Source: Pseudomonas sp.
GTDB taxonomy: Bacteria; Pseudomonadota; Gammaproteobacteria; Pseudomonadales; Pseudomonadaceae
Direction: 5' to 3'
Assembly (NCBI GenBank): GCA_026398835.1
Contig: JAPLSD010000492.1
Coordinates: forward strand, 1-14,954
DNA: 14,954 bases
Position numbers and translations under genes: made by a program. Positions 8,427 through 9,319 of the stretch are shown here, piece by piece (position 1 is the stretch's first letter; each line of letters starts with the position of its first letter). The notes beneath the pieces are model-generated. The model had not been told where the DNA came from, did not search any database, and saw only the letters and a program-made list of their open reading frames with translations.

Positions 8427-9319
8427 TGCACGCATTCAACCTGCAACCGAAAACCCTCTCGCTGGCCGAACGGCTGGCGGACCTGGCGGTGGACGCCTTG
8501 ATCGACGAAGCCGACCTGTCGCCCAAACCGGCGTTGGTGGACCGTCGCGGCAATGGCGCCCACAGCGATTTGCACCTGGGGCTGATGCACGCTTCGGCGC
8601 TGTCCTTGTGGTCGGCCTTCAAGGACATGGCCGAAGCAGCGCTTGAGTTTGGCGAAGTCGGTCTGCCGTTACGCGAAGCCCTCGGGCGTATTGGCCGCGA
8701 CGGCGAGCAAGTGATGCTCGCCACCACCAACGGCGTGAACACCCATCGCGGGGCGATCTGGGCCTTGGGTCTGTTGGTCGCTGCAGTCGCTCTGGAACCT
8801 GAATCCAGCGCCGCTGGCGCCGTGACCTTGCGCTCCGCACGACTGGCCTTACTCAACGACCGTTATGCCCCGCAGCCGCTGAGCCATGGTGCCCAAGTCG
8901 CCCAACGCTACGGCGCTCGCGGAGCCCGAGAAGAAGCGCAACTCGGCTTCCCGGCGGTGATTCAGCGCGCTCTGCCACAACTCAAACGCAGCCGTGCCGA
9001 TGGCCATGGTGAGCAGAACGCCCGGCTCGACGCCTTGCTGGCGATCATGACCACACTGGCCGACACCTGCGTGCTCTATCGCGCGGGCGAAGCGGGTTTG
9101 CTGGCCATGCAACACGGCGCGCAAGCAGTGCTCGACGCCGGTGGCAGCGCGAGTCTTGGCGGGCGCCGTCGTTTGCATGAGCTGGACCAACACTTATTGG
9201 CGTTGAACGCCTCGCCCGGTGGCGCGCGGATTTGCTCGCGGCGTGTCTGTTTATCGATCGTATCGAGTTCGGCGACGGCTTCATCCAAGGAGCATTTTGA
9301 TGGAAACCTTATCCTTTGA
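8426..9319 (+). CDS. mdcB: Triphosphoribosyl-dephospho-CoA synthase MdcB, apparent 3' frameshift
   Basis: MdcB joins ATP and dephospho-CoA to make the prosthetic-group precursor of the malonate decarboxylase carrier protein, like CitG. Family motifs are visible: SPKPALVDRRGNGAHSD (32-48) and TNGVNTHRGA (101-110). ATG 8426 has AGGAG (8415-8419) with 6-nt spacing and overlaps the mdcA stop. After ...LNASPGGA (near 9226) this frame turns into an arginine- and serine-rich tail running 20 nt into mdcC. In the +2 frame, 9226-9300 reads ADLLAACLFIDRIEFGDG and onward, which is the normal MdcB end, stopping at TGA 9298-9300 in a TGATG junction with mdcC. This fits loss of one G from GCGGCG. Restored length would be about 291 residues. 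The enzyme may be impaired, or the base may be a sequencing error. Confidence 0.9.
   Translation: MHAFNLQPKTLSLAERLADLAVDALIDEADLSPKPALVDRRGNGAHSDLHLGLMHASALSLWSAFKDMAEAALEFGEVGLPLREALGRIGRDGEQVMLATTNGVNTHRGAIWALGLLVAAVALEPESSAAGAVTLRSARLALLNDRYAPQPLSHGAQVAQRYGARGAREEAQLGFPAVIQRALPQLKRSRADGHGEQNARLDALLAIMTTLADTCVLYRAGEAGLLAMQHGAQAVLDAGGSASLGGRRRLHELDQHLLALNASPGGARICSRRVCLSIVSSSATASSKEHFDGNLIL
9287..9292 (+). promoter_or_regulatory. Ribosome binding site fixing the mdcC start
   Basis: AAGGAG lies 7 nt before ATG 9300. It selects this start over upstream in-frame starts that would extend mdcC back to 9219, and it codes for part of the authentic MdcB C-terminus in the shifted frame. Confidence 0.8.

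What the first reader, a model, noticed from the sequence alone, without database searches (positions are those of the whole stretch)
9218..9319. Single-base deletion frameshift near the 3' end of mdcB
The mdcB frame is normal up to ...LNASPGGA, then becomes an R/S-rich tail. From 9226 the +2 frame encodes the expected hydrophobic MdcB/CitG ending and stops at 9298-9300 in a TGATG junction with mdcC. Restoring one G (GCGCGG to GCGGCGG) would rebuild a gene of about 291 codons. If real, MdcB loses its last roughly 24 native residues, which could leave MdcC without its prosthetic group and make the whole operon non-functional. Alternatively the site is a sequencing or assembly error, or MdcB tolerates the change.
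Basis: partly seen in the sequence, partly recalled or inferred. Interest (0 to 1): 0.75.

Follow-up and report, generated by a model that had tools for sequence, protein, structure and literature searches.

The report
Private frame break in malonate gene
A cofactor-making gene for using malonate has lost its reading frame near its end in this incomplete draft genome, and the gene before it lacks a short piece; relatives examined have both whole at these places, so this is either a draft error or a very recent loss, and ordinary either way.

Summary
mdcB (ATG 8426) reads normally to about residue 267 and then changes frame at 9223-9226; its usual last 24 residues lie in another frame (9226-9300, stop overlapping the mdcC start). 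The break is private: 147 of 147 relative loci have one base more there, 80 of 80 named Pseudomonas genomes have a whole mdcB, and 0 of the 120 best public proteins listed share the tail. The other mdc genes are open, and the window's branch shows no relaxed selection (150 silent, 42 replacing changes; nearest relative 159 and 62). The source is a poor draft (881 contigs, 73.9% complete) with at least one more private frame-breaking gap, in an OprD-family porin gene; but an automated comparison with complete genomes did not clearly separate it from them. I favour draft error (0.58) over recent real inactivation (0.34). Reads would decide. Either way it is an ordinary broken or misread gene of a known pathway.

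The parts
8426..9319 (+). mdcB as it reads in the window (297 aa and stop): family sequence to about residue 267, then a foreign tail of about 30 residues
9223..9226 (+). place of the frame break; the window has one base fewer than the relatives
9226..9300 (+). usual C-terminal 24 residues of MdcB, in another frame, with their stop
9300..9599 (+). mdcC, acyl carrier protein, whole; AAGGAG at 9287-9292 lies 7 nt before its ATG
6834..8426 (+). mdcA, open but lacking 78 nt (26 codons) after 6927 compared with relatives (the listed ORF starts at GTG 6828)
9592..10455 (+). mdcD, beta subunit, open
10452..11255 (+). mdcE, gamma subunit, open
11249..11878 (+). mdcG, holo-ACP synthase, open
11731..12810 (+). 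mdcH, malonyl transferase; the true start lies inside this ORF
12856..13287 (+). madL, malonate transporter subunit (true start inside this ORF)
13253..14053 (+). madM, malonate transporter subunit (true start inside this ORF)
14093..14954 (-). LysR-type regulator, cut by the contig end

Best explanation
The frame break is most likely an error of a thin draft assembly in a gene that is whole in the organism. mdcB there would encode an ordinary triphosphoribosyl-dephospho-CoA synthase, which makes the precursor that MdcG puts on MdcC, as the first step in arming malonate decarboxylase. The 78-nt gap in mdcA would be of the same origin. Shown: the break, its privacy, the second gap, and the lack of relaxed selection in the operon. 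Inferred: that the cause is technical.
For: The break is in none of 147 relative loci, none of 80 named genomes and none of the 120 best public proteins listed. The displaced end still reads as MdcB. The other mdc genes and madLM are open, and the window's branch has 150 silent and 42 replacing changes in mdc genes against 159 and 62 on the branch of L054 (Fisher p 0.17), mdcA 3' part 41 to 1, so the operon was under constraint until very recently at least. The source is 881 contigs at 73.87% completeness. A 16-nt private gap breaks an OprD-family porin gene on contig C170, 4 of 4 references being whole. PMC11017572 (abstract and passages) reports that low coverage makes spurious pseudogenes; its authors did not assess metagenome assemblies.
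Against: No reads or coverage could be seen. Gaps of 16 and 78 nt with clean junctions are not typical base-calling errors. The automated frame-break count does not separate the draft clearly: 2 of 54 genes in G000 against 1 of 46, 1 of 46, 0 of 61 and 0 of 43 in four other genomes, and that script counted mdcB itself as whole. Of 20 private frame-changing gap clusters in 53,483 bases of six other draft contigs I aligned 5, and only the porin one broke an identified gene.
Confidence: 0.58

Rival explanations
1. Real, very recent inactivation: the strain carries both lesions and has lost malonate decarboxylase activity, with too little time for the rest of the operon to decay.
For: Two private lesions sit 2.3 kb apart in one operon, whereas of 80 named genomes one had a frame break in mdcA and none in mdcB, C, D or E. 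A first lesion makes a second one neutral. The mdcA gap takes out about residues 32-58 of the solved MdcA just before Asn59, a residue lining the malonate pocket (PMC5534430 passages), and deleting mdcA, mdcC or mdcE abolished growth on malonate in PA14 (same passages). No other CitG-family gene is in the held 73.9% of the genome.
Against: No relaxed selection on the branch. Neither lesion is in any relative or in the listed public proteins. Draft quality is poor.
Confidence: 0.34
2. Real but tolerated: MdcB with a changed tail, and a shorter MdcA, still work.
For: The very end of MdcB varies among relatives (several lack about 6 residues there). The window's MdcB still passes NCBI's cut-off (302.5 against 282.35 bits, TIGR03132) and MdcA does too (970.5 against 789.15, TIGR01110).
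Against: The lost stretch begins earlier, at positions nearly invariant in 30 aligned sequences (A268, D269, L270, L271, A272, A273), and removes the last 14 of 272 profile positions. Structure models were too poor to judge (mean pLDDT 53.9 and 51.0).
Confidence: 0.07
3. Programmed frameshifting in mdcB.
For: Both frames are open and meet at one place.
Against: The relatives read one frame throughout, so there is no conserved site, and no slippery run is seen at 9218-9230 (by eye).
Confidence: 0.01

Closest known systems
MdcB, triphosphoribosyl-dephospho-CoA synthase of biotin-independent malonate decarboxylase (TIGR03132, Pfam CitG)
   Same: Residues 1-267, gene order, score above the family cut-off; 96% identical over that part to the protein of Pseudomonas sp. 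H11T01
   Different: The last 24 residues are in another frame and a foreign tail takes their place
Frame-disrupted genes of draft assemblies (spurious pseudogenes, PMC11017572, abstract and passages seen)
   Same: One private lesion per gene, relatives whole, low-completeness draft
   Different: Reads and coverage were not available; two of the gaps are 16 and 78 nt long
MdcA of Pseudomonas aeruginosa, PDB 5vit
   Same: Query residues 30-532 align with chain residues 54-554 over the rest of the protein
   Different: About residues 32-58 of the solved chain have no counterpart in the window

Membership tests
MdcB (TIGR03132) | score above the curated cut-off | tested here: met
   302.5 against 282.35 bits
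MdcB (TIGR03132) | match over the whole profile | tested here: not met
   positions 1-258 of 272; whole relative P0122 reaches 1-272
MdcB (TIGR03132) | place between mdcA and mdcC in a malonate decarboxylase operon | tested here: met
MdcB (TIGR03132) | triphosphoribosyl-dephospho-CoA synthase activity | not testable with these tools
   no assay; models of low confidence
Biotin-independent malonate decarboxylase operon (mdcABCDEGH with madLM) | all subunit and maturation genes present | tested here: met
   family matches for all
Biotin-independent malonate decarboxylase operon (mdcABCDEGH with madLM) | all genes whole | tested here: not met
   mdcA lacks 26 codons, mdcB frame broken
Programmed frameshift gene | frame change conserved in relatives | tested here: not met
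   147 of 147 loci have one base more; 80 of 80 named genomes have one whole frame
Pseudogene | lesion present in the living organism | not testable with these tools
   no reads or second assembly of the same strain
Pseudogene | relaxed selection on the lineage | tested here: not met
   mdc genes 150 silent and 42 replacing changes against 159 and 62; this does not exclude a very recent lesion

The most novel reading that the evidence does not exclude
A real two-hit, very recent shut-down of malonate decarboxylase: the cofactor-making enzyme loses its end and the acyl transferase loses the stretch before a pocket residue, while transporter, regulator and the other subunits are still kept and constrained, so that the strain would take up malonate without being able to use it.
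Probability: 0.3. Interest if true: 0.25.

Novelty: already known. Interest (0 to 1): 0.12.

Why it matters
Mainly as a caution. Both damaged genes still pass NCBI's family cut-offs, so by that test they would be named as ordinary mdcB and mdcA, and the genome would be credited with malonate use. If the lesions are real, they mark a very recent loss of one carbon source in a Pseudomonas lineage; if not, they show how many private gaps a thin draft can carry.

Tried and rejected
Structure prediction of a whole relative and of the window's MdcB gave mean pLDDT 53.9 and 51.0, too low for any structural claim; no fold search was run. No solved structure of MdcB was found by sequence; the one hit was weak and off-topic. 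No plasmid copy of mdcB at near identity. The 24-residue displaced end alone matched no Pfam family. A first selection script returned zeros because of wrong search settings and was redone. A genome-wide frame-break count was tried on 60 other draft contigs (only 19 genes comparable) and then on six long contigs with four reference genomes; it did not separate the draft clearly from complete genomes. In the 80-genome control, 29 of 80 mdcG flags were stops two positions before the end of the match, the single mdcH flag was a stop just before the end, and 22 of 79 madL flags were mostly variable ends; I do not count these as breaks, while the mdcA flag in L099 is a true frame break in that record. 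Programmed frameshifting was rejected for lack of conservation. One search counted 91 loci spanning the mdcA stretch, because loci fetched later were in its set; one search recounted on the 147 loci: 90 span it and carry it, 55 are cut by the locus end, 2 do not hold it.

Full report
What is there. The window is contig C401 of a draft genome of 3.83 Mb in 881 contigs, 73.87% complete. It holds a malonate decarboxylase operon, mdcABCDEGH with madL and madM, and a LysR-type regulator cut by the contig end. The nearest relatives found are Pseudomonas of the P. fluorescens group (the group name is recalled). mdcB starts at 8426 and runs open to a stop at 9317-9319, 17 bases inside mdcC. From 9226 another frame reads ADLLAACLFIDRIEFGDGFIQGAF and stops at 9298-9300, overlapping the ATG of mdcC at 9300. 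ORFs of three relatives match in two pieces meeting at 9226, the first 89-90% and the second 83-90% identical.

Is it private? In the DNA alignment of 147 relative loci (some genomes in it twice), 147 of 147 have one base more than the window around the break, and an alignment with 13 whole loci shows the same single uncompensated base in all 13. Of the 80 named genomes kept by the genome scan (80 kept of 96 found, chosen by similarity to the first 266 residues only), 80 have a whole mdcB. Of 3797 proteins matched in the public protein collection the best 120 are listed; all 120 cover 90% of the query and are 285-292 aa long, so none listed shares the tail. The nearest, from Pseudomonas sp. 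H11T01, is 96% identical over the shared part and 291 aa long.

A second lesion. mdcA in the window lacks 78 nt after 6927, exactly 26 codons in frame. Of 147 loci, 90 span the place and all 90 carry the stretch (79 of them named genomes), 55 are cut by the locus end and 2 do not hold it. The 120 best public MdcA proteins listed are 552-567 aa, against 532 in the window. Against the solved P. aeruginosa MdcA (5vit) the missing part is about residues 32-58; Asn59, reported to lie near the bound malonate, is kept (PMC5534430, passages).

Consequences if real. In PMC5534430 (passages) MdcB and MdcG make and attach the prosthetic group of MdcC, and deleting mdcA, mdcC or mdcE stops growth of PA14 on malonate; mdcB was not deleted in the passages that I saw. 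The lost end of MdcB includes positions nearly invariant in 30 aligned sequences and the last 14 of 272 profile positions. That this kills the enzyme is inference; the two structure models are too poor to help. No other CitG-family gene is in the held part of the genome. mdcC has its own AAGGAG 7 nt before its start, so its translation is probably kept (inference).

Error or real? For a real and old loss one expects relaxed selection. Polarised against 11 other loci, the window's branch has 150 silent and 42 replacing changes in the mdc structural genes, the branch of the nearest locus L054 159 and 62 (Fisher p 0.17); the mdcA 3' part has 41 and 1. mdcB before the break is less clear (19 and 12, against 25 and 9). 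So the lesions are very recent or technical. The draft has another private frame-breaking gap, 16 nt in an OprD-family porin gene on contig C170, whole in 4 of 4 references. An automated comparison flagged 2 of 54 genes in the draft against 1 of 46, 1 of 46, 0 of 61 and 0 of 43 in four other genomes, and itself missed mdcB, so it is weak. Twenty private frame-changing gap clusters were seen in 53,483 bases of six other draft contigs; I aligned five, and only the porin one broke an identified gene; the others were not resolved one by one. Among the 80 named genomes one (L099) has a frame break in mdcA and none in mdcB, C, D or E, so two lesions in one operon are unusual. Low coverage is reported to create spurious pseudogenes in isolate assemblies (PMC11017572, abstract and passages). 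Gap lengths of 16 and 78 nt speak somewhat against simple base errors. I weigh draft error at 0.58 and recent real loss at 0.34.

Verdict. It is an ordinary private lesion or draft error in a known gene; both broken genes still pass the family cut-offs.

Noticed in passing
window 6927-6928: mdcA lacks 78 nt (26 codons) that 90 of 90 spanning relative loci carry.
   Followed up: yes
window 5428-6665: A 61-nt sequence stands at 5428-5488 and again at 6605-6665 (95%), on both sides of two small ORFs (5564-6205, weakly like a nucleotidyltransferase, just under Pfam's cut-off, and 6144-6593); the nearest locus L054 has only about 160 bases between the flanking matches.
   Followed up: partly
L153 about 411-437 (draft contig C170): A private 16-nt gap breaks the frame of an OprD-family porin gene that is whole in 4 of 4 references.
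   Followed up: partly
L042 and L043 (genomes G006 and G037): MdcB of two other Pseudomonas genomes has an in-frame insertion of roughly 45-65 residues after about residue 73, open and without stops; several more genomes gave two matches and were not inspected.
   Followed up: partly
L099 (Pseudomonas lactucae MAFF 301380), about the first 1.8 kb: The mdcA frame of this record also breaks, at another place.
   Followed up: no
L065, L125, L127 and others, end of mdcB: The last residues of MdcB vary; several relatives lack about six codons just before the mdcC junction.
   Followed up: no
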